Source: Clostridia bacterium (lineage in GTDB: Bacteria; Bacillota_A; Clostridia; Christensenellales; CAG-138). Taken from it: a DNA stretch of 21,240 nucleotides. How positions within the stretch are numbered: the stretch's first letter is position 1; each line of letters opens with the position of its first letter. The stretch is taken from contig JAFZJT010000264.1 in the NCBI GenBank assembly GCA_017553815.1, forward strand, positions 1 through 21,240, given 5' to 3'. The notes below the pieces were generated by a model that saw only the letters and a program-made list of their open reading frames with translations, searched no databases and had not been told where the DNA came from. This document shows, in pieces, positions 2,406 to 21,240 of this stretch. Position numbers and translations under genes: made by a program.

Positions 2406-2454
2406 TGAGCCTAACTTCTATTCTTCGGGGTTTTCGCTTTTGAGGTGATTATTT

Positions 2455-2979
2455 ATGCTTTGTGTGATAGCAAAACTTGATAAGAGCGCGATCGAAAGGC
2501 TGGCTTCGCTGAAAAAAGCCTTTGTTCCCGCCGAGTTTGCCGCAAGACCGCTTTACGGGCATATTACGATAGCGAACTATATCGGGAGCGACGAGGCGGG
2601 CTTCATGGACTTCTGTAAAGCTCTGCTTAAGGGCGCTGTCGCGTTCCAAGTTGAGTATAAAAAGCTTGAGGTTTTGGAGAAATCCGCGATAATAGTCGCC
2701 TCGCCCGAAAAAGCGGGAACGCTTGCCGCGCTGCACCGCCAAATAGCCGAGAAGTTTGCGCCTTCGCTCAATGAATGGACGCAGCCGGAGCTTTGGCAGC
2801 CCCATACCACGCTTCTGTACTCCCCCGCTTTGGATCTTGATGCGATATGTGCGAATATGAAAAAAGCGTTCGCGCCGTTTTCCGCGCGGGTGTGCGCGAT
2901 CGAGTTTTCGCGCGTGCTCGATACGGACTATGAGATAGTTGAGAGGGTGGAGCTGAAGGAGCGCGGAAGTTTATCTTGA
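2455..2979 (+). CDS. 2H phosphoesterase / 2'-5' RNA ligase family protein
   Basis: This 174-residue protein carries the two signature H-x-T motifs of the 2H superfamily: H36-I-T38 (YGHITIAN) and H117-T-T119 (WQPHTTLLY), about 80 residues apart as expected. Members include LigT/ThpR and cyclic phosphodiesterases, which open 2',3'-cyclic phosphates on RNA ends or small nucleotides. Which substrate applies cannot be told from sequence. A very strong ribosome binding site, GAGGTGAT, sits just ahead of the ATG. The stop at 2977-2979 overlaps the ribosome binding site of the following HAD gene, so the two are probably translationally coupled. Predicted cytosolic, with no signal peptide or membrane segment. 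Confidence 0.88.
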   Translation: MLCVIAKLDKSAIERLASLKKAFVPAEFAARPLYGHITIANYIGSDEAGFMDFCKALLKGAVAFQVEYKKLEVLEKSAIIVASPEKAGTLAALHRQIAEKFAPSLNEWTQPELWQPHTTLLYSPALDLDAICANMKKAFAPFSARVCAIEFSRVLDTDYEIVERVELKERGSLS

Positions 2980-5388: not shown

Positions 5389-6434
5389 ACAAAATGAACA
5401 ACACGAAAAGTACGCACATAGATCCCGCAATTAAGGAGCTTTTCTCCCGTTTTTTCGATGGCAAGCCGATTTCCGCCGAGCTTATAGATACGAGCAGGGG
5501 CGAGGACGACTTTAGAAACACGCTCATAATAACGACCGATGGCGGCGAAAGAAGCGTTTTGAAGATAGTTTCAAACGATTTCACCTTCCCCGAAAGGATA
5601 CGAATGTGGCAGCGGACTGCCGAAGAATACCGCGATCTCGGGTATTACTGCCCGCGTATTTACTGCGATAAAAGCGGCGGCTTCCCCGTTATTGAGTATC
5701 GCGGCAAGCGCTGCATCGTTTACGCCGAGGAGTTTTCGATATTCAAGCCCCTATCGGATCGCGCGGCTGACGGAAGCGATCAGGCCGTGAGCGCAAAAGC
5801 CTATTTCAAGGATATTTGGAGCATGAGCGCAAAGCTTGCGGCAAAGAAGCTCGATTATACGAAATCCCCTTCGGGCTACTGCCTTTTCGAGACCTTTTGC
5901 CCGAGCGATCGGACCGACGAGGTCATGGAAAATGCGCTCGAATGGAAGGAGTATGCCCTTTCGCTTCCCGTGGAGTTTTCGGAGCAGGTGCAAAGGATTT
6001 GGGATGCTTGGAGCGCCAACAGAGAGGCGCTGAAGGAGCGCTATTTCCTTCTTCCGACCTCGGTTTTTCAGGCCGATCTCAACCCGACCAATCTGCTCAT
6101 CGACGACAGCGGCGCTTTTCGCGGCGTTTACGACTTCAATCTCTGCGGCAGGGATGTTTTTCTGAACTATCTTATGCGCGAGAACTACGCCGATTTTGAG
6201 GAGGAGATCGAGCTTATCCGCAGTGCGTTGACTATCGCCAAAGAGCACTATGCTTTTTCCGAGGATGAGAAGGCGGCGGCGCTCCCCCTCTATCGCTGCA
6301 TCAAGCCGCTTTGGTATACGCGGGTGTACGATCTCAAGCAGGCGGGAAATGATGCTGCGGAGATAAAGCATTGTCTTGATCGGATAGAGCATTATCTTAC
6401 TGCGGATATTGATTTTATAAGCTATATGGACTGA
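5385..6434 (+). CDS. Aminoglycoside phosphotransferase (APH)-like kinase
   Basis: This 349-residue protein belongs to the APH/choline-kinase-like superfamily of small-molecule kinases. The catalytic loop reads FQADLNPTNLLIDD: D231 is the putative catalytic base and N236 the metal ligand. The usual HGD is replaced by QAD. The second metal aspartate is D250 in GVYDFNLCGRDVF. The N-lobe has a nucleotide-binding strand pair with VLKIVS. Homologues phosphorylate choline, homoserine, sugars or antibiotics; the substrate here is not evident and resistance should not be assumed. AGAAGG at 5371-5376 supports ATG 5385, which overlaps the Nudix stop by 4 bases. This close pairing suggests the two products act on related compounds, but that is inference. 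Confidence 0.8.
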   Translation: MNKMNNTKSTHIDPAIKELFSRFFDGKPISAELIDTSRGEDDFRNTLIITTDGGERSVLKIVSNDFTFPERIRMWQRTAEEYRDLGYYCPRIYCDKSGGFPVIEYRGKRCIVYAEEFSIFKPLSDRAADGSDQAVSAKAYFKDIWSMSAKLAAKKLDYTKSPSGYCLFETFCPSDRTDEVMENALEWKEYALSLPVEFSEQVQRIWDAWSANREALKERYFLLPTSVFQADLNPTNLLIDDSGAFRGVYDFNLCGRDVFLNYLMRENYADFEEEIELIRSALTIAKEHYAFSEDEKAAALPLYRCIKPLWYTRVYDLKQAGNDAAEIKHCLDRIEHYLTADIDFISYMD

Positions 6435-6482
6435 GCTTCGCCAAACGGAGCATTATATGGCAGAGTTTACGGAGGTTTTAAA

Positions 6483-6989
6483 ATGAGTTTTCTTGAATTG
6501 GCGCGCAGCAGGTTTTCGGTGCTGGAATACGAGCATAGACCCGTTGAGAGCGAAAAGATAGACGCTATAATCGAGGCGGCGATCGCGGCTCCAACCGCGT
6601 GCAACAACCAGCCGCAGCGGATACTTGTGATCGACAGCGACGAGCTTCGTGCCAAGCTCAACGAGGTGGTTCCGAGCAAATACTATGTTCCCGTTGCGTT
6701 TTTGGTGTGTTATGACAGGGAAAGCTGTTGGGTTCGCCCGATGGATGGCAAGCCCAGCGGAGATATCGACGCAAGCATTGCGACAACCCACATGATGCTT
6801 GAAGCGACAGAGCTCGGTTTGGGTTCGATATGGGTCATGTATTGGGATCCCGATAAGATGAAGGAAGTCTTTTGTTTGGACGATGGCATTGAACCCGTGG
6901 CGCTTATTATCGCGGGATACAGGGCGGAGAACGCGAAGCCTCGGCAGGGGCATCTGAACCGCAAAAGCAGGGACGAGATAATCCTTTAG
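6483..6989 (+). CDS. Small nitroreductase-family flavoprotein
   Basis: At 168 residues this is a compact member of the FMN-dependent nitroreductase superfamily. Diagnostic segments are the N-terminal ELARSRFSVLEYE helix, PTACNNQPQRILV (residues about 37-49) and IATTHMMLEATELGLGSIWV in the middle, then PVALIIAGYRAENAKPR near the C-terminus. The usual R-R-S-V-R FMN phosphate-binding signature is altered to R10-F-S-V-L14, so the second arginine is missing. Such proteins use NAD(P)H and FMN to reduce nitro, quinone or other conjugated compounds. CGGAGG about 7 bases before the ATG supports the start. It lies 48 bp after the kinase gene and 30 bp before the P-loop gene, so an operon is likely. Confidence 0.88.
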   Translation: MSFLELARSRFSVLEYEHRPVESEKIDAIIEAAIAAPTACNNQPQRILVIDSDELRAKLNEVVPSKYYVPVAFLVCYDRESCWVRPMDGKPSGDIDASIATTHMMLEATELGLGSIWVMYWDPDKMKEVFCLDDGIEPVALIIAGYRAENAKPRQGHLNRKSRDEIIL

Positions 6990-7019
6990 CGGCGGCTTTA
7001 TGGAAAGGGGGTATCGGCA

Positions 7020-7685
7020 TTGAAGATAGAAAACAACATACTCAAGCATTATCTTAAAAACGCATACTTCATAACGGGCACGGCGTACGCGGGCAAATCC
7101 ACGGCGGCAAAGCTCCTTTCCGAAAGGTACGGGCTTCTTCTTTGCGGCGAAAACTACCACAGCAGGGTGTCGGACTCCGTGGCAACGCGCGAAAATCAGC
7201 CCGATATAAGCTTTATAAACGAGCTCACCGATTGGCGGGAGTTCGTGCTTCGTTCGCCCGAGGAATACGAGAGGTGGATATACGCGGTAGGGCGCGAGGC
7301 GGCGGAATTCGAGGTGGCGGAGCTTATCGCTATTTCGCAGGAGAGGAAGGTCATCGTCGATACGAATATCCCCATCGATATCCTCAAAGAGATTTCCGAC
7401 TATAGCCGCGTTGCCGTCATGCTTTCGCCGCAGTCGCTGAGCGTTGAGCGCTTCTTCGAGCGCGACGACCCCGACAAAAGATTTCTTCTCGAAGTTATCG
7501 AAAGCTGTGACGACCCCGAGGCCGCCATGGCGAACTATCGGCGCGGGCTGGAGCTTATAAACAGCCAAAAGCACTACGACGAACTCGCAAACAGCGGCTT
7601 TTTTACGCTCGTTCGGCAGGACGACGGGCGGGATACCCGCGAGGAGGTCGTGGAGAAGCTCGCGAAGCATTTCGCGCTGGTATGA
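7020..7685 (+). CDS. P-loop NTPase, kinase-like, family unclear
   Basis: This 221-residue protein has one Walker A motif, G20-TAYA-G25-K26-S27-T28, at the end of strand FIT. A hydrophobic strand ending in Asp, KVIVDTNIP (about residues 109-117), may act as the second acidic site. A short strand VAVMLSP follows, as in nucleoside- or shikimate-type kinases. An Arg-rich segment RFFERDDPDKR (about 144-154) resembles a LID region. I do not recognise a specific family or substrate. The start codon is TTG at 7020, supported by AAAGGGGG at 7004-7011 with an 8-base spacer. No membrane segment or signal peptide is seen. It ends the stretch that starts near 4386; the next gene seems to have its own promoter. 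Confidence 0.78.
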   Translation: MKIENNILKHYLKNAYFITGTAYAGKSTAAKLLSERYGLLLCGENYHSRVSDSVATRENQPDISFINELTDWREFVLRSPEEYERWIYAVGREAAEFEVAELIAISQERKVIVDTNIPIDILKEISDYSRVAVMLSPQSLSVERFFERDDPDKRFLLEVIESCDDPEAAMANYRRGLELINSQKHYDELANSGFFTLVRQDDGRDTREEVVEKLAKHFALV

Positions 7686-7714
7686 TTCGCCTTTTCCCGC
7701 CTTCCGCGCCATTA

Positions 7715-13266: not shown

Positions 13267-14490
13267 ATGATAAACGCATACGACCTTTTGAACGAGCGCG
13301 GCTACCTCAAGCAGTGCTCCCATCCCGAGGAGCTTCGTGAGCTTCTCTCTAAGGAAAAGCTGACCTTCTACATCGGCTTCGACCCCACCGCGGAGAGCCT
13401 TACGGTCGGCCACTACGTTGCAATGTGCGTTATGGCTCACATGCAAAGATGCGGGCATAAGCCCATCGTGCTTCTCGGCGGCGGCACGGCGATGATAGCC
13501 GACCCCTCGGGCAAGACCGAGCTAAGAAAGCTTCTCTCCGTTGAGGAGCTCGATTATAACGTTGAGTGCATCAAAAAGCAGATGTCGCGCCTTATCGACT
13601 TCGAGGGCGAGAACGCGGCTATCCTCGTAAACAACGCCGATTGGCTCCGCAATCTCAACTTCATGGACTTCATGCGCGAAATCGCGGTGCATTTCTCCGT
13701 CAACGAGATGCTCCGTGCCGAGTGCTACAAGCAGCGCTACGAGCGCGGACTCACCTTCTTTGAGTTCAGCTACATGCTCATGCAGAGCTACGACTTCCTC
13801 TGCCTGAACCGCAAGTACGGGTGCGAGCTTCAGATGGGCGGCGACGACCAGTGGAGCAATATCCTCGGCGGCGCGGATCTCATCAGGCGCAAGGAAAGAA
13901 AGCGCGCCTATGCCCTCACGACCCGCCTGCTCACGACTGCGGACGGCAAGAAGATGGGCAAGACCGAGAAGGGCGCGGTGTGGCTCAGCGAGGAGCGCAC
14001 GAGCGTTTTCGATTTCTACCAGTATTTCCGCAATATCGATGATGCGGACGTTAAGACCTGCCTCTGCCTTCTGACCTTCCTTCCAATGAGCGAGATAGAT
14101 GCGCTTTGCGCTGAGGGCGCAAACATCAACGAGGCGAAGCGGGTGCTTGCATACACCGTAACGAGCCAGGTCCACGGCGAGGAGAAGGCAAAGCAGGCTC
14201 AGGAAGCCGCGCTGGCGCTCTTCTCCGGCAAGGGCGATATCTCGCACATGCCCACCGTGACCGTTACCGATGAGGACGCGGAGGCGACCGGCATGAGCCT
14301 CGTTCGCCTGCTCGTTCACGCGGGCATCGAAAAGTCCAATTCCGCCGCCATTCGCTCGATAAAGGAGGGCGGAATCAGCGTCAACGACGAGAAGGTGACC
14401 GACACGCAGGCCGTGCTCGATCGTGCGCTTCTTGACGGAGGCATCATCCTCAAGAAGGGCAAAAAAACCTTCGTCCGCCTTGTAAAATAA
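13267..14490 (+). CDS. tyrS: Tyrosyl-tRNA synthetase
   Basis: This 407-residue class I aminoacyl-tRNA synthetase charges tRNA-Tyr. The catalytic domain has FYIGFDPTAESLTVGH with the HIGH-equivalent at residues 47-50 (VGHY), the tyrosine site region FEFSYMLMQSYDF and QMGGDDQWSNI, and the KMSKS loop as K229-MGKT. The C-terminal S4 RNA-binding domain is complete (about residues 340-407, with IRSIKEGGISVNDEKV). The length is normal for bacterial TyrS. No T-box lies upstream: the gap to the aminotransferase is 39 bp and the only leader is the short one before that gene. It is therefore probably expressed from the 11971 promoter. Confidence 0.98.
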   Translation: MINAYDLLNERGYLKQCSHPEELRELLSKEKLTFYIGFDPTAESLTVGHYVAMCVMAHMQRCGHKPIVLLGGGTAMIADPSGKTELRKLLSVEELDYNVECIKKQMSRLIDFEGENAAILVNNADWLRNLNFMDFMREIAVHFSVNEMLRAECYKQRYERGLTFFEFSYMLMQSYDFLCLNRKYGCELQMGGDDQWSNILGGADLIRRKERKRAYALTTRLLTTADGKKMGKTEKGAVWLSEERTSVFDFYQYFRNIDDADVKTCLCLLTFLPMSEIDALCAEGANINEAKRVLAYTVTSQVHGEEKAKQAQEAALALFSGKGDISHMPTVTVTDEDAEATGMSLVRLLVHAGIEKSNSAAIRSIKEGGISVNDEKVTDTQAVLDRALLDGGIILKKGKKTFVRLVK

Positions 14491-14508
14491 CCCCATCGGA
14501 GGAACGTA

Positions 14509-15141
14509 ATGCCGCTCAAGAGCTATAAAATGCCCGCAAAGGCAAGCGAAACAGAGTACGTCGTGAACCGCTCGCGGTTCATCGGAAGGTGCTTCCCCGT
14601 TTGCTCGGAGCAGGAGGCGCTTGAGCGGCTTGAAGAAGTTCGCAGGAAGCACGAGGGCGCGACGCACAACTGCTATGCCTACTCCCTTCTGGACGGCACG
14701 CGCAGGTTCTCAGACGACGGCGAACCGGGCGGCACGGCGGGCATGCCCATCATGGACACGCTTATACGCTCGAGCACCGAGAACGCGCTCATCGTCGTTA
14801 CCCGCTATTTCGGCGGCATCCTGCTCGGAAGCGGCGGCCTCGTTCGCGCATACTCCAAATCCGCTTCGGACGCGCTGAACGCTTCGGGCGCTCTGATGAT
14901 GACGCCCTGCGATCAGATCGAGTTCACCGTGGATTACACGCGCTACGGCGCGATAGAGGGCTTCGTTCGAGGAAATTCCACCGTGAAGGCCACGGAATTT
15001 ACCGACAGCATCCTTTTCCGCTGTTTGGTCGAAAAGGAAAGGGCGGAAGCCTTTATCGCCGATATCATCGAGCGCACGGACGGACGGAGCAGGCCAACTG
15101 TTTCGGGCGAAGAATATCTTCCCGTTTCCGTCGAGCAGTGA
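14509..15141 (+). CDS. YigZ/IMPACT family protein
   Basis: This 210-residue protein is of normal length for the YigZ family. The N-terminal UPF0029/IMPACT domain has VVNRSRFIGRCFPV, HNCYAYSLLDGTRRFSDDGE, PGGTAGMPIMD and VTRYFGGILLGSGGLVRAYS. A smaller C-terminal domain (about residues 138-205, DYTRYGAIEGF) has the EF-G domain IV-like fold. Eukaryotic IMPACT modulates Gcn2; the bacterial role is unresolved, though a proposed link to translation fits the tyrS neighbour. GGAGG before the ATG supports the start, 18 bp after tyrS. No membrane segment or catalytic motif is seen. Confidence 0.95.
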   Translation: MPLKSYKMPAKASETEYVVNRSRFIGRCFPVCSEQEALERLEEVRRKHEGATHNCYAYSLLDGTRRFSDDGEPGGTAGMPIMDTLIRSSTENALIVVTRYFGGILLGSGGLVRAYSKSASDALNASGALMMTPCDQIEFTVDYTRYGAIEGFVRGNSTVKATEFTDSILFRCLVEKERAEAFIADIIERTDGRSRPTVSGEEYLPVSVEQ

Positions 15142-15147
15142 ATAAGC

Positions 15148-15196
15148 GGATGCGGAGCATCCCCACAAAAAAGTTTTCCCCGCGCCGAACGGCGCG
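15148..15196 (+). repeat. Two-hairpin intergenic element (REP-like?)
   Basis: In the 100-bp gap between yigZ and ilvE, GGATGC-GGA-GCATCC (15148-15162) is followed by CCACAAAAAAGTTTTCC and then CGCGCC-GAAC-GGCGCG (15181-15196). The first hairpin may act as a weak terminator, but no T-run follows directly. The layout resembles dispersed bacterial hairpin repeats such as REP elements. Whether it recurs elsewhere in the genome cannot be seen here. Confidence 0.5.
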
Positions 15197-15241
15197 AAGA
15201 ATAATAAACCATTAAACCCATTATTAACCGGAGGCTGAAAA

Positions 15242-16330
15242 ATGGATATCAAGATCACCAAAGCCACAGAGCTCAAGAGAAAGCCCACCGTTGAGGAGGA
15301 AGGCTCCCTCGGTTTCGGCAAGCGCTTCACCGACCACATGTTCATCATGAACTATGACAACGGCGAATGGCACGACGCACGCATCGTTCCCTACCAGAAG
15401 TTCTCCATGGATCCCGCTTCCTCGGTTTTCCACTATGCGCAGGAGATCTTCGAGGGGCTCAAGGCATACCGCACCGCTGACGACCGCATCCTCATGTTCC
15501 GCGCGAAGGACAACGCGCGCCGTCTGAACGATTCGGCCGACCGTATGTGCATGCCCCGTGTGGACGTTGACTTCAACTATGAGGTCATGCGTCAGCTCGT
15601 GAACGTGGAGCGCGACTGGGTGCCCCACTCCCCCGGCACCAGCCTGTATCTGCGCCCGACCATGATCGCAAACGACGAGGCGCTCGGCGTACACGCCGCG
15701 AAGAGCTACATCTACTACGTCATCTGCGCGCCCTCCGGCGCTTACTACAAGGCGGGTCTCGCCCCCATCCGCATCCGCGTTGAGGATAAATACGGTCGCG
15801 CGGTCCGCGGCGGCACCGGCTTTGCAAAGACCGGCGGCAACTACGCCTGCTCTATCCTTGCGGGCGCGGAGGCCGAGAAGGACGGCTACAGCCAGGTTCT
15901 CTGGCTCGACGGCGAGCACATGAAATACGTTCAGGAAGTCGGCGCGATGAACATGATGTTCCTCATCGACGGCAAGCTCGTTACCGCTCCCCTTGAGGAC
16001 ACCATCCTGCCCGGTATCACCCGCCGCAGCGTCATGACCCTTGCCCGCGAGATGGGCGTTGAAGTCGAGGAGCGTCCCCTCTCGGTCGATGAGCTGTTCG
16101 AAGCCGGCGAGAGCGGCAAGCTTCAGGAGGCATTCGGCACCGGCACCGCCGCAGTCGTTTCCCCCGTCGGCGAGCTCGCGTACCGCGACAAGCGTATCTA
16201 CATCGGCGACAAGTCCGTCAACAACGGCATCGGCGAGCTGACCATGAAGCTCTACAACACCCTCACCGACCTGCAGTGGGGTCGCATCAAGGATACCCAC
16301 GGCTGGGTTACCGATATCGACAAGAACTGA
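15242..16330 (+). CDS. ilvE: Branched-chain amino acid aminotransferase
   Basis: This 362-residue fold-type IV PLP enzyme interconverts Leu, Ile and Val with their 2-oxo acids. It is of the longer BCAT type (about 355-365 residues, YwaA/BCAT-like) and not the short 300-residue IlvE. K196 in GTGFAKTGGNYACS is the Schiff-base lysine. Also seen are SSVFHYAQEIFEGLKAYR, LYLRPTMIA, EVGAMNMMFL and LPGITRRSVM, with TGTAAVVSPVG near the C-terminus binding cofactor phosphate. CGGAGG at 15229-15234 supports the ATG. It follows yigZ after 100 bp holding two hairpins, and no clear promoter was seen there, so it may be read from upstream. A strong terminator follows. The other ilv/leu genes are not in the window. 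Confidence 0.96.
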   Translation: MDIKITKATELKRKPTVEEEGSLGFGKRFTDHMFIMNYDNGEWHDARIVPYQKFSMDPASSVFHYAQEIFEGLKAYRTADDRILMFRAKDNARRLNDSADRMCMPRVDVDFNYEVMRQLVNVERDWVPHSPGTSLYLRPTMIANDEALGVHAAKSYIYYVICAPSGAYYKAGLAPIRIRVEDKYGRAVRGGTGFAKTGGNYACSILAGAEAEKDGYSQVLWLDGEHMKYVQEVGAMNMMFLIDGKLVTAPLEDTILPGITRRSVMTLAREMGVEVEERPLSVDELFEAGESGKLQEAFGTGTAAVVSPVGELAYRDKRIYIGDKSVNNGIGELTMKLYNTLTDLQWGRIKDTHGWVTDIDKN

Positions 16331-16350
16331 CAGCACTAATCCCGCATATT

Positions 16351-16385
16351 GCGAGCTGCTCTTTAGCGGCTCGCTTTTCTCTTTT
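16351..16385 (+). terminator. Strong intrinsic terminator after ilvE
   Basis: GCGAGCTGCT (16351-16360), loop CTTT, AGCGGCTCGC (16365-16374) form a 10-bp stem with one G-U pair, followed by TTTTCTCTTTT. It ends the aminotransferase-tyrS-yigZ-ilvE region 20 bp after the ilvE stop. Confidence 0.92.
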
Positions 16386-16609
16386 GCTTCGGTGTGCTGC
16401 AATCATGCGCCTTAAGAGAAGCGTTCTCGAAATTCAGTCTAAAGCGCGCCGCATTTTTAAGTGTCAAATTATATAATATAATCGGTTGTGCTTAAAGTAA
16501 GTGATAAAAACCAGTACGCCGCTCGTTATTGCGAATATATAATGCAAGAATTGCGCATTCTGCATATATTTTTGCTAACTATATATTCAAAACATACGCT
16601 TTAGGCGCA
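16386..16609 (+). other. AT-rich intergenic stretch without a gene
   Basis: No plausible coding region is seen on either strand. The composition turns AT-rich between about 16455 and 16600. Contents noted: a small GAGAA-GCG-TTCTC hairpin near 16416; two overlapping TATAAT boxes (16472-16482) without a convincing -35; and an imperfect inverted repeat at 16537-16569 (ATGCAAGAAT pairing with ATTCTGCAT around TGCGC, extended by ATAT/ATAT), followed by a short T-run. The last could be a weak terminator or a protein-binding site. Confidence 0.4.
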
Positions 16610-16638
16610 TTGACTTTCAATATATGCTTTGGTAAAAT
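16610..16638 (+). promoter_or_regulatory. Sigma-A-type promoter of the leader/subtilase unit
   Basis: TTGACT (16610-16615), a 17-base spacer and TAAAAT (16633-16638) form the best promoter match in this gap. Transcription would start near 16645, about 258 bases before the subtilase start codon, leaving a long leader. Confidence 0.75.
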
Positions 16639-16706
16639 CGTTGAGGACAGCGGTTTGCCCCTCTGTCAAACACTACTTTGCAACCCCAATCTCTATTGGA
16701 GGCAAT

Positions 16707-16832
16707 ATGCGAAATCGGTTCCTTCGCCGCCCTAATACCGCCGTTATGTTCCGTGCCGTCAGGCACGGCTTTATGATGCGCCGTTTTGCGCGATTTGTTT
16801 TTACGCGCTTTAACTGCACCGCAATGTCATAG
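16707..16832 (+). CDS. Possible 41-residue basic small protein or leader peptide
   Basis: ATG 16707 follows TGGAGG (16697-16702) by 4 bases and opens a 41-codon frame ending in TAG at 16830-16832. The product would be rich in Arg and Phe (MRNRFLRRPN..., then FARFVFTRFN), with no signal peptide and no family I recognise. In favour: promoter, ribosome binding site, and a stop 8 bases before the terminator stem, as in leader-peptide attenuators. Against: short length, and the strong CCGTGCC/GGCACGG hairpin inside it suits an RNA better. Its ribosome binding site is part of the right arm of the 16678-16705 stem. Low confidence as a real protein. Confidence 0.25.
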   Translation: MRNRFLRRPNTAVMFRAVRHGFMMRRFARFVFTRFNCTAMS

Positions 16833-16840
16833 AAATATTC

Positions 16841-16867
16841 AAACAAAGTGGAAACACTTTGTTTTTT
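16841..16867 (+). terminator. Perfect intrinsic terminator 35 bp before the subtilase start
   Basis: AAACAAAGTG (16841-16850), a GAAA tetraloop and CACTTTGTTT (16855-16864) form a perfect 10-bp stem, with a T-run through 16867. It lies between the only good promoter and the subtilase ribosome binding site (16888-16894). Full-length subtilase mRNA from that promoter therefore needs read-through. Confidence 0.88.
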
Positions 16868-16902
16868 ATATAAAACGAAAAAACAAAATGGAGGACATCA
16901 GA

Positions 16903-19900
16903 ATGTCAAAAGCAACCAAGCGCTTCCTCGCCTTTGCCCTTGTGTTTGCAATGCTTCTTTCCTACGCCGTAAGCGGCCTCGCAAGAAGAAGCAATGTGGA
17001 CGTAGAGCGCATCGGCGCTGAGGAGCTCCGACTCGAAGAGCTCGAGTCCGGCGTTATTTCCCTGCCTCGCCTCGAAGCAGCGACCCGCAGCACTGAGCAG
17101 GAGCAGACCGTACCCACTGCAGAGTACGCACCCGATGAGATCGTGCGCGTATCCATCATTCTCAACAAGCCCTCGACGCTCGATAAGGGCTATCCCACGA
17201 AGAATATCGCTGAGAACCGCAGCGCGATGAACTACCGCGACAGCCTCAAGCGCGATCAGGCCGAGCTCACCCGCCGCATCGAGGATGCTATCGGCGAGAA
17301 GCTCAACGTTAAGTGGAACCTCACCCTTGCGATGAACCTGATCTCCGTCGAGATCCGCTATGAGCAGATCGAGACCATAAAGGCGCTTGAAGGCGTGCTG
17401 GACGTTCAGCTCGAAAACATCTTCGAAGCCATCAGTACCAAGGACGAGGGAGATGATACCGCCGAACCCATGACCGCCGTCACGAGCGAGCACATGGTAT
17501 TTGCGACCAACGCTTGGGCGGAGGGCTACACCGGCGCGGGCAGCCGAATCGCCGTTATCGATACCGGTACCGCCTATCAGCATAAGTCATTCCTTACCGA
17601 CGCTTACGAATATTCGCTTCAGCAGAACGCGATCGCTAAGGGCATGACCCTTTCTGCGTACAAGAGCAGCCTCAACCTTCTGACCTGGAACGAGATCAAC
17701 GGCCTCAAGAGCCAGCTCAACAAGAGCACCATTAACCAGAACGTTTATCTCAACGCAAAGCATCCCTTCGCATACAACTACGTTGACGACAACTATAAGA
17801 TCACCCATGCGGACGACAATCAGGGCAACCACGGCTCCCACGTTGCGGGTATCGCCGCGGCGAACCGCTACGTCAAGAGCGGCAACGTCTACGTTGAGGC
17901 CGCCGAAAACGTGTACGCGGTCGGTATCGCTCCCGACGCTCAGCTCATCACGATGAAGGTGTTCGGCACAAAAGGCGGCGCGTTTGAGTCCGACTATATG
18001 GCAGCAATCGAGGACGCGATCATCCTCAAGTGCGACGCCATCAACCTTTCCCTCGGCTCCAGCACAGCGGGCTTCACCATCAACTCCTACTACAACGTCA
18101 TGAACAAGATGGTCAACAGCTCCGCGCTCGTTACTATGGCGGCGGGCAACGCCTATTCATGGCCGTACAAGCTTCAGGGTGAAGCCGCGCTCTACGCCGA
18201 GGATATCAATTTCCATACCGGCGGTTCCCCCGGAACCTACAACAACGGCATGTGCGTTGCATCCGCCGACAATATCGGCCTCGTTACCAACGCGCTCCGC
18301 TTTGCAAACGGTCTCAACGTTGCCTACAAGGATTCGGCAAGCTCCAACGCACACGCGATGACGACCATCCCCGGCAACTACGGCTTCGTTTACCTTGACG
18401 GCAGCGCTACTTCTGCCGAGCTTTCCGCTGTCAACCAGCGCGTTCCCCTTGCAAACAAGATAGTTATCTGCAACCGCGGCGGCAACACCACATTCGTTCA
18501 GAAGGCCAACAATATCAACGCCTACGGCGCAGCGGCCATCGTCGTTGCGAACAATGCCCCCGGAAACATCCTGATGAACGCGAGCGGCTACAACGGCACC
18601 GCCCCCTTCGTTTCGATCTCACAGGAGGACGGCGTTCTTATTAGGAACTCCGCCGTACGCGCGACCACAGGCAACTACGTTTACTACACCGGCAACGTTA
18701 CCGTTTCGCAGGATAAGACCACCGTTATCACCACCACCCTCGATAACGCAAAGATCTCCAGCTTCAGCTCCCGCGGCATCCCCGGCTCGCTTCTTATGAA
18801 GCCCGAGATCACCGCTCCCGGCGGCAGTATCTACTCCGTAAACGGCCTCAACAACACCGATTACGAGACCAAGTCCGGCACCTCGATGGCAACCCCGCAT
18901 GTCTCCGGTATGGCCGGCATCCTCGGCCAGTACATTCGCGAGAACAATATGCAGAATAAGATAGCGGATCGCAATGTTCGTCATCTTATCACCAGCCTTC
19001 TTATGTCCACCGCGAAGCCCATGAAGAACGACGGCCAGTACGTTTCAATACTCAGCCAGGGAAGCGGCCTTGCAAACGTATACTCCGCCATCAAAGCGCA
19101 GTCCCATATTCTCATGGGTTCAAACGCCACTTCGGCATACGCCGACGGCAAGGTCAAGGTCGAGCTCGGCCACGATCCGCAGCGCAGCGGCAATTACAGC
19201 TACAGCTTCTCGATCAACAACATGAGCAATCGCAGCCTGAGCTACAGCCTCAGCACCGATATGTTCACCCAGAACATCTACACGAAGAACGGTCTAAGCT
19301 ACATGTCCGAGCAGACCCGCAGCATGGGCGCGACCGTTACCTACCGCGTGAACAACGCGAGCGTTACCTCCGTCACCGTTCCCGCGAACGGCTCCGTCAC
19401 CGTTACGGTCAGCATCGCGCTCACCGCAAACGAAAAGACCAAGCTCAACAACGAGAACAAGGGCGGCGCGTACGTCGAGGGCTTTACCCACATAAGGTGT
19501 ACCACGAACAACGGCGACGTTGACCACTCCATCCCGATCCTCGGCTTCTACGGCAACTGGACCGACGCTTCGATGTTTGACAACACCTCCGCCGTAGACG
19601 TTTCCTACGGCAAGGACGTTAAGATCCCCTACACCCAGAACAAGGACACCAACTATCTGACAGTTCGCTACAGCGGTCAGAACGCAAACACCACCTACCT
19701 CGGCAACCCTTACGTTATCGAGGAGAACTTCCCCGAGGATCGACTTGCACTGAACGGCGGCACCACTATCGTTTCCGCGAAGTACAGCATCATCCGCAAC
19801 GCGGCGACCATATATCCTGCGATCTTCAACGCGGCGGGCGAACCTCTCTTCGGCGGCGATTATCTCACCAAGATATTCCAGCCCTATTATGCGGCGGGTC

Positions 19901-21240
19901 AGGCAAAGTGGGTCAATACCGACGCAAGGACGGCGACCTTCAACCGCACCGTATCCTCCCTTGACGCTAATGAGGGCGATCAGATCACCATCGGCGTGTT
20001 CGCAGTTCCCGAGTACTACGCGCTCAAGCTCAACCCCACCACCAACACGCATACCATCAGCTACCGCGATATCGGCAGACTCCTTGCGCAGGGCGAGCTC
20101 GGCAGGGGCTCCTACGTTGGTTATAATGTAACCATCGACAACACCGCCCCCACCGTTTCCGGCGCATCCATCAGCTCCGACCGCACCAAAGTGACCGTCA
20201 GGGCGCAGGATAACCAGTACATTGCCTATATCAGCCTCATGGATACCGCGCACGAGACTCTCTACGTTGGTGCTGTTCCCAATCAGGCGGGCGCAGGTCA
20301 GGAAGCGACTGCGGTGCTCGATATCTCCGGCCTCGGCCTCACCGGCACCGTTGCGATCGTTCTCGGCGACTACGCGGGCAACGAGAAGGCTTACACCATC
20401 AACCTTAACTCGAACGCGACCCCGTCTCCGACGGCTACCCCCGCTCCCACCGCAACTCCGAGACCTACCAACACCCCCGTGGTCACCGCCACTCCGGCTC
20501 CCACTGCCGCTCCCGGCGTTACCACCTATACCCTCGTCAACAACGTTGAGGTCGGCAGCAGGTACGTTATCGTTGCCGAAAGCTCCATCTCCGGCACCAC
20601 CGGCTATGCGGTCGGCAACACCGCTACCTCCGGCAGCCGCTATCTGAACTCCGTTGCGGTCACCGTCAACGCGAACAACACCCTTACCGTTCCCGCCGCG
20701 AGCGCGAGCTCCATCACCTGGATCGCCGGCGGCAGCGCGAACGCGGGCTACACCTGGAGAAGCGTTGGAAACAACAAGTACATGGGTCTTGATTCGGCTC
20801 AGTTCCTTGCCCCCTCCGACACCGCGATCAACTGGCTGTATTCGACCACTAACGGCTCGTTCAACAACCAGGTCGATACCGACGGCTACTACTATCTGAC
20901 CATTGCGTCCGCCATGACCTACTTCACCACCGCAAAGAATGCGGCAACCTTCCGCCTCTACAAGGTGACCGAAGGCGCGGCGGCTCCTACTGCGGCTCCC
21001 ACGGCTACCCCGACGCCGAAGCCCACGGCTACTCCGACGCCTAAGCCCACGGCTACTCCGACGCCTAAGCCCACGGCTACTCCGACGCCCAAGCCCACGG
21101 CTACCCCGACGCCCAAGCCCACCAACACCCCCGCTCCCACCGCGGCTCCCGGCGTTACCACCTATACCCTCGTCAACAACGTTGAGGTCGGCAGCAGATA
21201 CGTTATCGTTGCCGAGAACTCCATCTCCGGCACCACCGGC
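16903..21240 (+). CDS. Secreted subtilisin-family (S8) cell-envelope protease, 3' end outside window
   Basis: The frame is open from ATG 16903 to the window end, 1446 codons without a stop. Signal peptide: about residues 1-27 (K3, K6, R7, hydrophobic core, SGLA). Pro-domain like inhibitor I9: about 79-175. Catalytic triad: D220 (AVIDTG), H310 (NHGSHVAGI), S661 (SGTSMATPH), with oxyanion N416 (AAGN). A PA-type insert lies at about 518-590. The 90-residue Asp-His spacing and the PA insert match the C5a peptidase/lactocepin group. Fn3-like beta domains follow (about 745-890, then to 1170). A Thr/Pro linker leads to a 150-residue module (1206-1355), a second linker and a second copy from 1417. 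No wall anchor is visible yet. TGGAGG at 16888-16894 supports the start. Expression is probably controlled by the terminator-containing leader. Likely role: surface or extracellular protein degradation. Confidence 0.96.
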   Translation, partial: MSKATKRFLAFALVFAMLLSYAVSGLARRSNVDVERIGAEELRLEELESGVISLPRLEAATRSTEQEQTVPTAEYAPDEIVRVSIILNKPSTLDKGYPTKNIAENRSAMNYRDSLKRDQAELTRRIEDAIGEKLNVKWNLTLAMNLISVEIRYEQIETIKALEGVLDVQLENIFEAISTKDEGDDTAEPMTAVTSEHMVFATNAWAEGYTGAGSRIAVIDTGTAYQHKSFLTDAYEYSLQQNAIAKGMTLSAYKSSLNLLTWNEINGLKSQLNKSTINQNVYLNAKHPFAYNYVDDNYKITHADDNQGNHGSHVAGIAAANRYVKSGNVYVEAAENVYAVGIAPDAQLITMKVFGTKGGAFESDYMAAIEDAIILKCDAINLSLGSSTAGFTINSYYNVMNKMVNSSALVTMAAGNAYSWPYKLQGEAALYAEDINFHTGGSPGTYNNGMCVASADNIGLVTNALRFANGLNVAYKDSASSNAHAMTTIPGNYGFVYLDGSATSAELSAVNQRVPLANKIVICNRGGNTTFVQKANNINAYGAAAIVVANNAPGNILMNASGYNGTAPFVSISQEDGVLIRNSAVRATTGNYVYYTGNVTVSQDKTTVITTTLDNAKISSFSSRGIPGSLLMKPEITAPGGSIYSVNGLNNTDYETKSGTSMATPHVSGMAGILGQYIRENNMQNKIADRNVRHLITSLLMSTAKPMKNDGQYVSILSQGSGLANVYSAIKAQSHILMGSNATSAYADGKVKVELGHDPQRSGNYSYSFSINNMSNRSLSYSLSTDMFTQNIYTKNGLSYMSEQTRSMGATVTYRVNNASVTSVTVPANGSVTVTVSIALTANEKTKLNNENKGGAYVEGFTHIRCTTNNGDVDHSIPILGFYGNWTDASMFDNTSAVDVSYGKDVKIPYTQNKDTNYLTVRYSGQNANTTYLGNPYVIEENFPEDRLALNGGTTIVSAKYSIIRNAATIYPAIFNAAGEPLFGGDYLTKIFQPYYAAGQAKWVNTDARTATFNRTVSSLDANEGDQITIGVFAVPEYYALKLNPTTNTHTISYRDIGRLLAQGELGRGSYVGYNVTIDNTAPTVSGASISSDRTKVTVRAQDNQYIAYISLMDTAHETLYVGAVPNQAGAGQEATAVLDISGLGLTGTVAIVLGDYAGNEKAYTINLNSNATPSPTATPAPTATPRPTNTPVVTATPAPTAAPGVTTYTLVNNVEVGSRYVIVAESSISGTTGYAVGNTATSGSRYLNSVAVTVNANNTLTVPAASASSITWIAGGSANAGYTWRSVGNNKYMGLDSAQFLAPSDTAINWLYSTTNGSFNNQVDTDGYYYLTIASAMTYFTTAKNAATFRLYKVTEGAAAPTAAPTATPTPKPTATPTPKPTATPTPKPTATPTPKPTATPTPKPTNTPAPTAAPGVTTYTLVNNVEVGSRYVIVAENSISGTTG
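20515..21240 (+). repeat. 636-bp tandem duplication of the subtilase C-terminal module
   Basis: The stretch starting at 20515 (GVTTYTLVNNVEVGSRYVIV) recurs from 21151, a period of 636 bp or 212 residues, in frame. Over the first 90 bases the two copies differ at only 3 positions, so the duplication is recent or kept uniform by recombination. The second copy is cut by the window end. The module looks like an all-beta, lectin-like surface domain ending in RLYKV; its exact family is not recognised. Confidence 0.9.
20998..21117 (+). repeat. 24-bp coding minisatellite, five units
   Basis: Five tandem 24-bp units beginning CCCACGGCTACYCCGACG encode PTATPTPK repeated, a stiff Thr/Pro/Lys linker between C-terminal modules of the subtilase. 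Units differ only at third codon positions (C/T and G/T/C), so the array is a likely length-variable tract. Confidence 0.92.

What the first reader, a model, noticed from the sequence alone, without database searches (positions are those of the whole stretch)
16610..16902. Promoter - structured leader - terminator arrangement controlling a giant secreted protease
The sequence shows a sigma-A-type promoter (16610-16638), about 200 bases of possible stem-loops with mutually exclusive alternatives at the 5' end, a perfect 10-bp GAAA-loop terminator (16841-16867), and only 35 bp later the subtilase ATG with its own ribosome binding site. No -35/-10 pair fits between terminator and start: TATAAA at 16869 lacks a -35. 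Expression of the protease therefore probably depends on conditional read-through. I know no riboswitch of this form, so an undescribed cis-regulatory RNA is possible. The alternative is an independent small RNA ending at the terminator.
Basis: partly seen in the sequence, partly recalled or inferred. Interest (0 to 1): 0.7.

Follow-up and report, generated by a model that had tools for sequence, protein, structure and literature searches.

The report
Translated leader and terminator before protease

Summary
The promoter (16610-16638), the terminator (16841-16867) and the lack of a second promoter motif hold up. One ortholog was found, G001 (MAG RUG13931), with the same promoter, 41-codon frame, terminator and protease start. 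The stretch before the ORF has diverged (44% of columns identical), while Shine-Dalgarno to terminator is 88% identical. The ORF differs at 18 of 123 bases; synonymous divergence in 10 alignable neighbouring genes (of 14 tried) is 0.354. The constraint is on the nucleotides; the peptide is no better kept than random placement of the same changes. Without its terminator the leader folds unremarkably, no consensus pair changed on both sides (n = 2), and the window's antiterminator is absent in G001. No Rfam family matches. Best reading: a translation-linked attenuator, mechanically like the S. gallolyticus pil1 leader, in which a ribosome finishing the leader ORF hinders a weak terminator. The anatomy is well supported; the conditional switch is inferred. 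A small independent gene with a leaky terminator is a serious rival.

The parts
16351..16374 (+). strong terminator of the upstream aminotransferase gene, separating it from the protease unit
   Evidence: 10-pair stem plus T-rich tail; terminator score 28.1
16610..16638 (+). sigma-A-type promoter with TG before the -10
   Evidence: 10 of 12 hexamer matches, 17-nt spacer; conserved in G001
16674..16680 (+). possible antiterminator strand, pairs with 16844-16850 in the window only
   Evidence: pairing up to 0.83 (5' arm alone) and 0.97-0.99 (loop added) before the 3' arm is made; absent in G001
16695..16702 (+). Shine-Dalgarno ATTGGAGG of the leader ORF; start of the conserved block
   Evidence: 14 of 15 bases of 16695-16709 identical in G001; BLAST block begins at 16695
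16707..16832 (+). 41-codon leader ORF (arginine-rich, no known relative)
16751..16768 (+). hairpin inside the leader ORF
   Evidence: 7 pairs in the window; 6 pairs in the two-sequence consensus
16841..16867 (+). intrinsic terminator, 10-bp stem, GAAA loop (GCAA in G001), T-tract
   Evidence: weak by score, 6.4 on the 7-bp core and -18.5 if all 10 pairs are counted
16890..16894 (+). Shine-Dalgarno GGAGG of the protease gene
   Evidence: 15 of 17 columns of 16889-16905 identical in G001
16903..21240 (+). subtilase gene (S8, PA, Fn3-like domains), runs off the window

Best explanation
It is a translated-leader transcription attenuator. Shown by sequence and comparison: a conserved promoter stands before a 41-codon ORF with a strong Shine-Dalgarno; the ORF stops 8 nt (9 nt in G001) before a terminator-like hairpin; the protease has no other visible promoter. 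Inferred: a leader RNA of about 220 nt is made, many transcripts end near 16867, and the protease is made when RNA polymerase reads through. A ribosome that follows closely and reaches the ORF's stop codon would sit at the base of the terminator's 5' arm and hinder the hairpin, so read-through would rise with leader translation, as in the S. gallolyticus pil1 leader. What signal, if any, changes leader translation is unknown.
For: SD plus ORF of 41 codons or more is rare in shuffles (0.0004 of 5000). The block from SD to terminator is 88% identical in G001, while the untranslated stretch before it is 44% identical by column. The ORF differs at 18 of 123 bases; P of so few is 2e-7 at the mean synonymous divergence of 10 neighbouring genes (0.354) and 0.002 at that of the slowest gene (0.26). 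Length, stop and stop-to-stem distance (8 and 9 nt) are kept. The terminator is beyond chance and weak. A published leader of this anatomy works by ribosome occlusion (PMC3894217, passages). Rare codons, conserved in part, resemble bmrB.
Against: No expression data. Two species only. The terminator's complete hairpin forms at about 0.96 in every folded suffix, so nothing in the RNA alone makes termination conditional. At 8 nt a terminating ribosome would cover only the AT-rich base of the stem (inference), so occlusion may be partial. No shared antiterminator. Peptide similarity is no better than random placement of the same changes, and about half of random placements keep the frame open. Poor codon use also fits a frame that is not much translated. 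The hairpin scores below zero if all 10 pairs are counted.
Confidence: 0.45

Rival explanations
1. An independent small gene: promoter, 41-residue basic protein (or a small RNA of about 220 nt) and its own terminator. The protease behind it is made by constant leaky read-through, so the terminator only sets a ratio.
For: Complete gene anatomy with its own SD and terminator. Nucleotide-level constraint on the ORF. A weak terminator.
Against: No protein relative was found. dN/dS is 0.79 (13 replacement, 5 synonymous changes) against 0.07 in the aminotransferase and 0.26 in the protease N-terminus; the peptide is no more similar than random placement gives. For an RNA gene the 5' part would be expected to be kept, but 16641-16694 is not.
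Confidence: 0.33
2. The protease has its own promoter inside or just after the terminator, using TATATAAA (16867-16874) with an unusual -35 or another sigma factor; leader and protease are then separate units.
For: TATATAAA just past the stem is identical in both species.
Against: The scan finds no -35/-10 pair there. The same bases can pair with the AT-rich base of the extended hairpin, which would also explain their conservation.
Confidence: 0.1
3. A new metabolite- or protein-sensing structured RNA (riboswitch-like) controls the terminator.
For: The whole leader folds better than shuffles (z -3.00 and -2.75); window-only antiterminator; as good a consensus energy arose in 0.015 of 600 simulations for the full block with the terminator.
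Against: Without the terminator z is -1.59 and -1.29; for the ORF block alone 0.127 and 0.247 of simulations do as well, and 0.185 for the central hairpin; 0 of 48 pairs changed on both sides; no Rfam match (below-threshold hits only); antiterminator not shared.
Confidence: 0.07

Closest known systems
pil1 leader of Streptococcus gallolyticus (PMC3894217; abstract and passages seen)
   Same: Promoter, short translated ORF (38 aa there, 41 here), premature intrinsic terminator, then a secreted or surface protein gene with its own RBS; no classical antiterminator needed. There, stops 4 bp before or inside the hairpin go with high expression, and stops at least 28 nt before it with the mostly low, mixed profile; here the distance is 8-9 nt.
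   Different: pil1 varies leader length through GCAGA repeats; no tandem repeat was found here. The pil1 hairpin is much stronger (-18.7 kcal/mol there; -10.7 for the 10-bp hairpin here). No experiment here.
bmrB leader of Bacillus subtilis bmrCD (PMC4191407; passages seen)
   Same: Translated leader with rare codons and an intrinsic terminator before the regulated genes.
   Different: The bmrB terminator lies inside the ORF and there are predicted antiterminator and anti-antiterminator structures; here the terminator lies after the ORF and no shared antiterminator was found. It controls a drug transporter.
mdtU upstream ORF of E. coli mdtJI (PMC7815308; passages seen)
   Same: Upstream ORF of 34 codons whose translation affects premature termination.
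   Different: Rho-dependent; stop codon 106 nt upstream of the gene; conserved in at least 17 genera. Here an intrinsic terminator and two species known.

Membership tests
Ribosome-mediated transcription attenuator (translated leader) | Short ORF with ribosome binding site between promoter and terminator | tested here: met
   same in G001
Ribosome-mediated transcription attenuator (translated leader) | Intrinsic terminator before the regulated gene, without another promoter | tested here: met
   motif scan only, so a non-canonical promoter is not excluded
Ribosome-mediated transcription attenuator (translated leader) | Antiterminator that competes with the terminator (classical trp or bmrB type) | tested here: not met
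   Present in the window only, absent in G001; the conserved TTTGTTT/AAACAAA pairing is weak and not populated
Ribosome-mediated transcription attenuator (translated leader) | Read-through changes with leader translation | not testable with these tools
   needs a reporter or RNA data
pil1-type occlusion attenuator | Leader stop codon close to the terminator stem | tested here: met
   8 nt in the window, 9 nt in G001
pil1-type occlusion attenuator | Leader length varied by tandem repeats | tested here: not met
   no tandem repeat in 16400-17000
Known Rfam family (riboswitch, T-box, other leader) | Match at the family's gathering score | tested here: not met
   0 matches in the window; only below-threshold hits in 16400-16950
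New structured cis-regulatory RNA | Covariation among relatives | tested here: inconclusive
   Two sequences only; 0 of 48 consensus pairs changed on both sides, 2 changed on one side and stayed paired

The most novel reading that the evidence does not exclude
A young, lineage-specific translated leader, with no relative found in the protein set, Rfam or the genomes searched, uses the ribosome's arrival at its stop codon to gate a weak terminator and so ties production of a giant secreted protease to translation capacity, perhaps to arginine supply, given the arginine-rich ORF with rare arginine codons.
Probability: 0.2. Interest if true: 0.55.

Novelty: new member of a known kind. Interest (0 to 1): 0.33.

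Why it matters
If true, it would add a secreted protease of a Clostridia lineage to the genes controlled by translated leaders, and show that such leaders can be confined to a few species, so that covariation or protein-family searches miss them. It also shows that a "structured leader" read from raw sequence can be mostly a short ORF.

Tried and rejected
Riboswitch or known RNA: Rfam scans found nothing at gathering score and only below-threshold hits. A covariance model from the two sequences found G001 and one weak hit (G039, E 0.48) among 103 family genomes, with stricter filters; the weak hit was not inspected.

Relatives of the leader elsewhere: besides G001 the BLAST matches were short. 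The family hits returned as loci were re-aligned locally and stayed short or fell elsewhere in the locus. Of the order hits, eight were re-aligned; L052 lies in a mutL-like coding frame (identified by eye) and L051 before a permease-like gene (by eye). L088 (class) was looked at only by a motif search that found nothing. The remaining matches were not each inspected.

Leader shared with other subtilases: of 24 loci printed (L062-L084 from the family, L062 being G001's own truncated gene, plus L002), 2 (L072, L073) had a terminator-like hairpin within 60 nt of the assigned start; several starts are uncertain. The leader sequence itself was found in G001 only. A first pass over the same loci was discarded because minus-strand loci had not been turned.

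Conserved antiterminator TTTGTTT (16794-16800) with AAACAAA (16841-16847): identical in both species but weak (-3.7 kcal/mol for the surrounding duplex) and not populated. Frameshift into the protease frame: that frame is open from the leader ORF's stop to the protease ATG in both species, but chance gives 0.16 and 0.20 and the encoded residues differ. Phase-variable repeats: none found. Viral contigs: four exact patterns gave no match and no subtilase relative. Phages: no match. Plasmids: five records with short matches of 6-10% of the query. Papers: four searches were answered; I saw listings (20 of 26, 20 of 31, 0 and 13 of 13 titles) and no listed title names such a leader before a subtilase. 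Three papers were seen in passages, none in full.

Full report
What is there. The scan finds the promoter at 16610-16638 and the hairpin at 16841-16864, and no promoter-like site between the hairpin and the protease ATG at 16903. The promoter motif alone is not above chance (4 found, 3.5 expected in 14000-21240), but the perfect 10-bp stem with T-run is (0 of 3000 shuffles). The gene behind it encodes a subtilase of at least 1445 residues with S8, PA and Fn3-like domains; the best sequence matches among solved structures are chemokine protease C, a cell envelope proteinase and C5a peptidase.

Positions 16707-16832 are a 41-codon ORF behind ATTGGAGG. In dinucleotide shuffles of 16645-16840 an ORF of at least 41 codons behind GGAGG occurs in 0.0004 of 5000, and behind any of five SD-like words in 0.008. 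The stop codon ends 8 nt before the terminator stem. Its codon use is poor (CAI 0.50; 3.8% of 132 gene pieces of that length are as low).

The relative. No whole genome is held for the window. A protein search of genome contigs gave nine loci; the closest, L001, is from MAG RUG13931 and starts inside the protease. The leader was found on another contig of the same genome, G001:C43. The aligned region shows the same order: aminotransferase, hairpin, promoter, 41-codon ORF, terminator, protease start. Identity by part: intergenic before the promoter 162 of 289 columns; promoter 29 of 37; untranslated stretch 27 of 61 columns; SD and start 14 of 15; ORF body 102 of 120; stop to terminator 43 of 46 columns; spacer 4 of 14 columns; protease SD to ATG 15 of 17 columns. 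The only change in the terminator hairpin is GAAA to GCAA in the loop. Two other full-length proteins (P0004, P0005) share 44 of 44 and 42 of 44 N-terminal residues with G001's protease, so they probably add no third lineage; their DNA could not be opened.

How strong is the constraint. Of 14 window genes tried, 10 aligned to the G001 contig; their pS is 0.354 overall (range 0.260-0.493), and the protease has 0.446. The ORF differs at 18 of 123 bases; P of so few is 2e-7 at 0.354 and 0.002 at 0.26, the slowest gene and the ORF's neighbour. Synonymous sites alone: 5 of about 29 changed, P 0.03 at 0.354 and 0.20 at 0.26. Within the ORF pS is 0.171 and pN 0.139, dN/dS 0.79, against 0.07 in the aminotransferase and 0.26 in the protease N-terminus. 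When the same substitutions are placed at random, the peptide is as similar as observed in 0.41 and 0.45 of 20000 simulations, and the frame breaks in about half. So the nucleotides are constrained and the amino-acid sequence is not visibly protected beyond that. The evidence for translation is the SD, its place at the edge of conservation, and the shuffle test; it is not codon-level conservation.

RNA structure. The whole leader folds better than shuffles (z -3.00 and -2.75), largely because of the terminator: without it z is -1.59 and -1.29. RNAalifold predicts 48 pairs, 2 changed on one side, none on both. Random placement of the substitutions gives as good a consensus energy in 1.5% of 600 cases for the full block with the terminator, but in 13% and 25% for the ORF block alone and 19% for its central hairpin. 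The one antiterminator in the window (16674-16680 with 16844-16850) is strong before the 3' arm is made and is lost once it is complete; G001 lacks it. A riboswitch is therefore not supported.

Distribution. At family level 37 of 103 genomes had some match at E up to 0.1, but only G001 a full one. In the order sample 11 of 396 had a match at E up to 0.001, and in the class sample 2 of 391 at E up to 1e-4; the only full match was again G001, the source of those two queries. The ORF has no relative in the protein set by shared words. No viral-contig pattern or phage match was found, and plasmids gave only short matches.

Mechanism. The terminator is weak: by the d'Aubenton-Carafa formula (recalled) its score is 6.4 on the 7-bp core and -18.5 if all 10 pairs are counted, against 28.1 for the upstream terminator. 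Partial read-through is therefore plausible. In S. gallolyticus pil1 a leader ORF and a premature terminator control a surface protein without a classical antiterminator: stops 4 bp before or inside the hairpin go with high expression, and stops at least 28 nt before it with the mixed, mostly low profile (PMC3894217, abstract and passages). At 8-9 nt the present leader is nearer the first case. I favour occlusion by the terminating ribosome (0.45) over a small independent gene with constant leaky read-through (0.33). Which is right cannot be settled from two sequences.

Novelty. The scheme is known; this instance was not named in the listings of the searches made. Without a shown signal or regulation it deserves modest interest.

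Noticed in passing
window 20437-21240; P0004, P0005: The protease's C-terminal half carries a repeated module of roughly 130 residues between proline-threonine linkers (three copies by eye in P0004). Pfam assigns only S8, PA and Fn3-like domains, while most loci (L003-L009) match the window protein only in this part, so it looks like a widespread unnamed module.
   Followed up: partly
window 16777-16902; L020 1874-1987: The protease reading frame is open upstream through the terminator into the leader ORF in both species; between the leader stop and the ATG chance gives this in 0.16 and 0.20 of shuffles.
   Followed up: yes
window 16773-16802: Longest identical run inside the leader ORF, 30 of 30 bases; it holds a small hairpin followed by ATTTGTTTTT, which the scan lists as a terminator-like site.
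   Followed up: partly
window 2424-2961: This stretch is 95.5% identical to G001, more than the other aligned blocks of the contig (74-91%); it covers most of a gene with a 2'-5' RNA ligase domain.
   Followed up: no
window 6456-7712, minus strand: A 419-codon minus-strand ORF without a Pfam match lies among plus-strand genes; the block 5418-7686 aligns to G001 at 90.9%.
   Followed up: no
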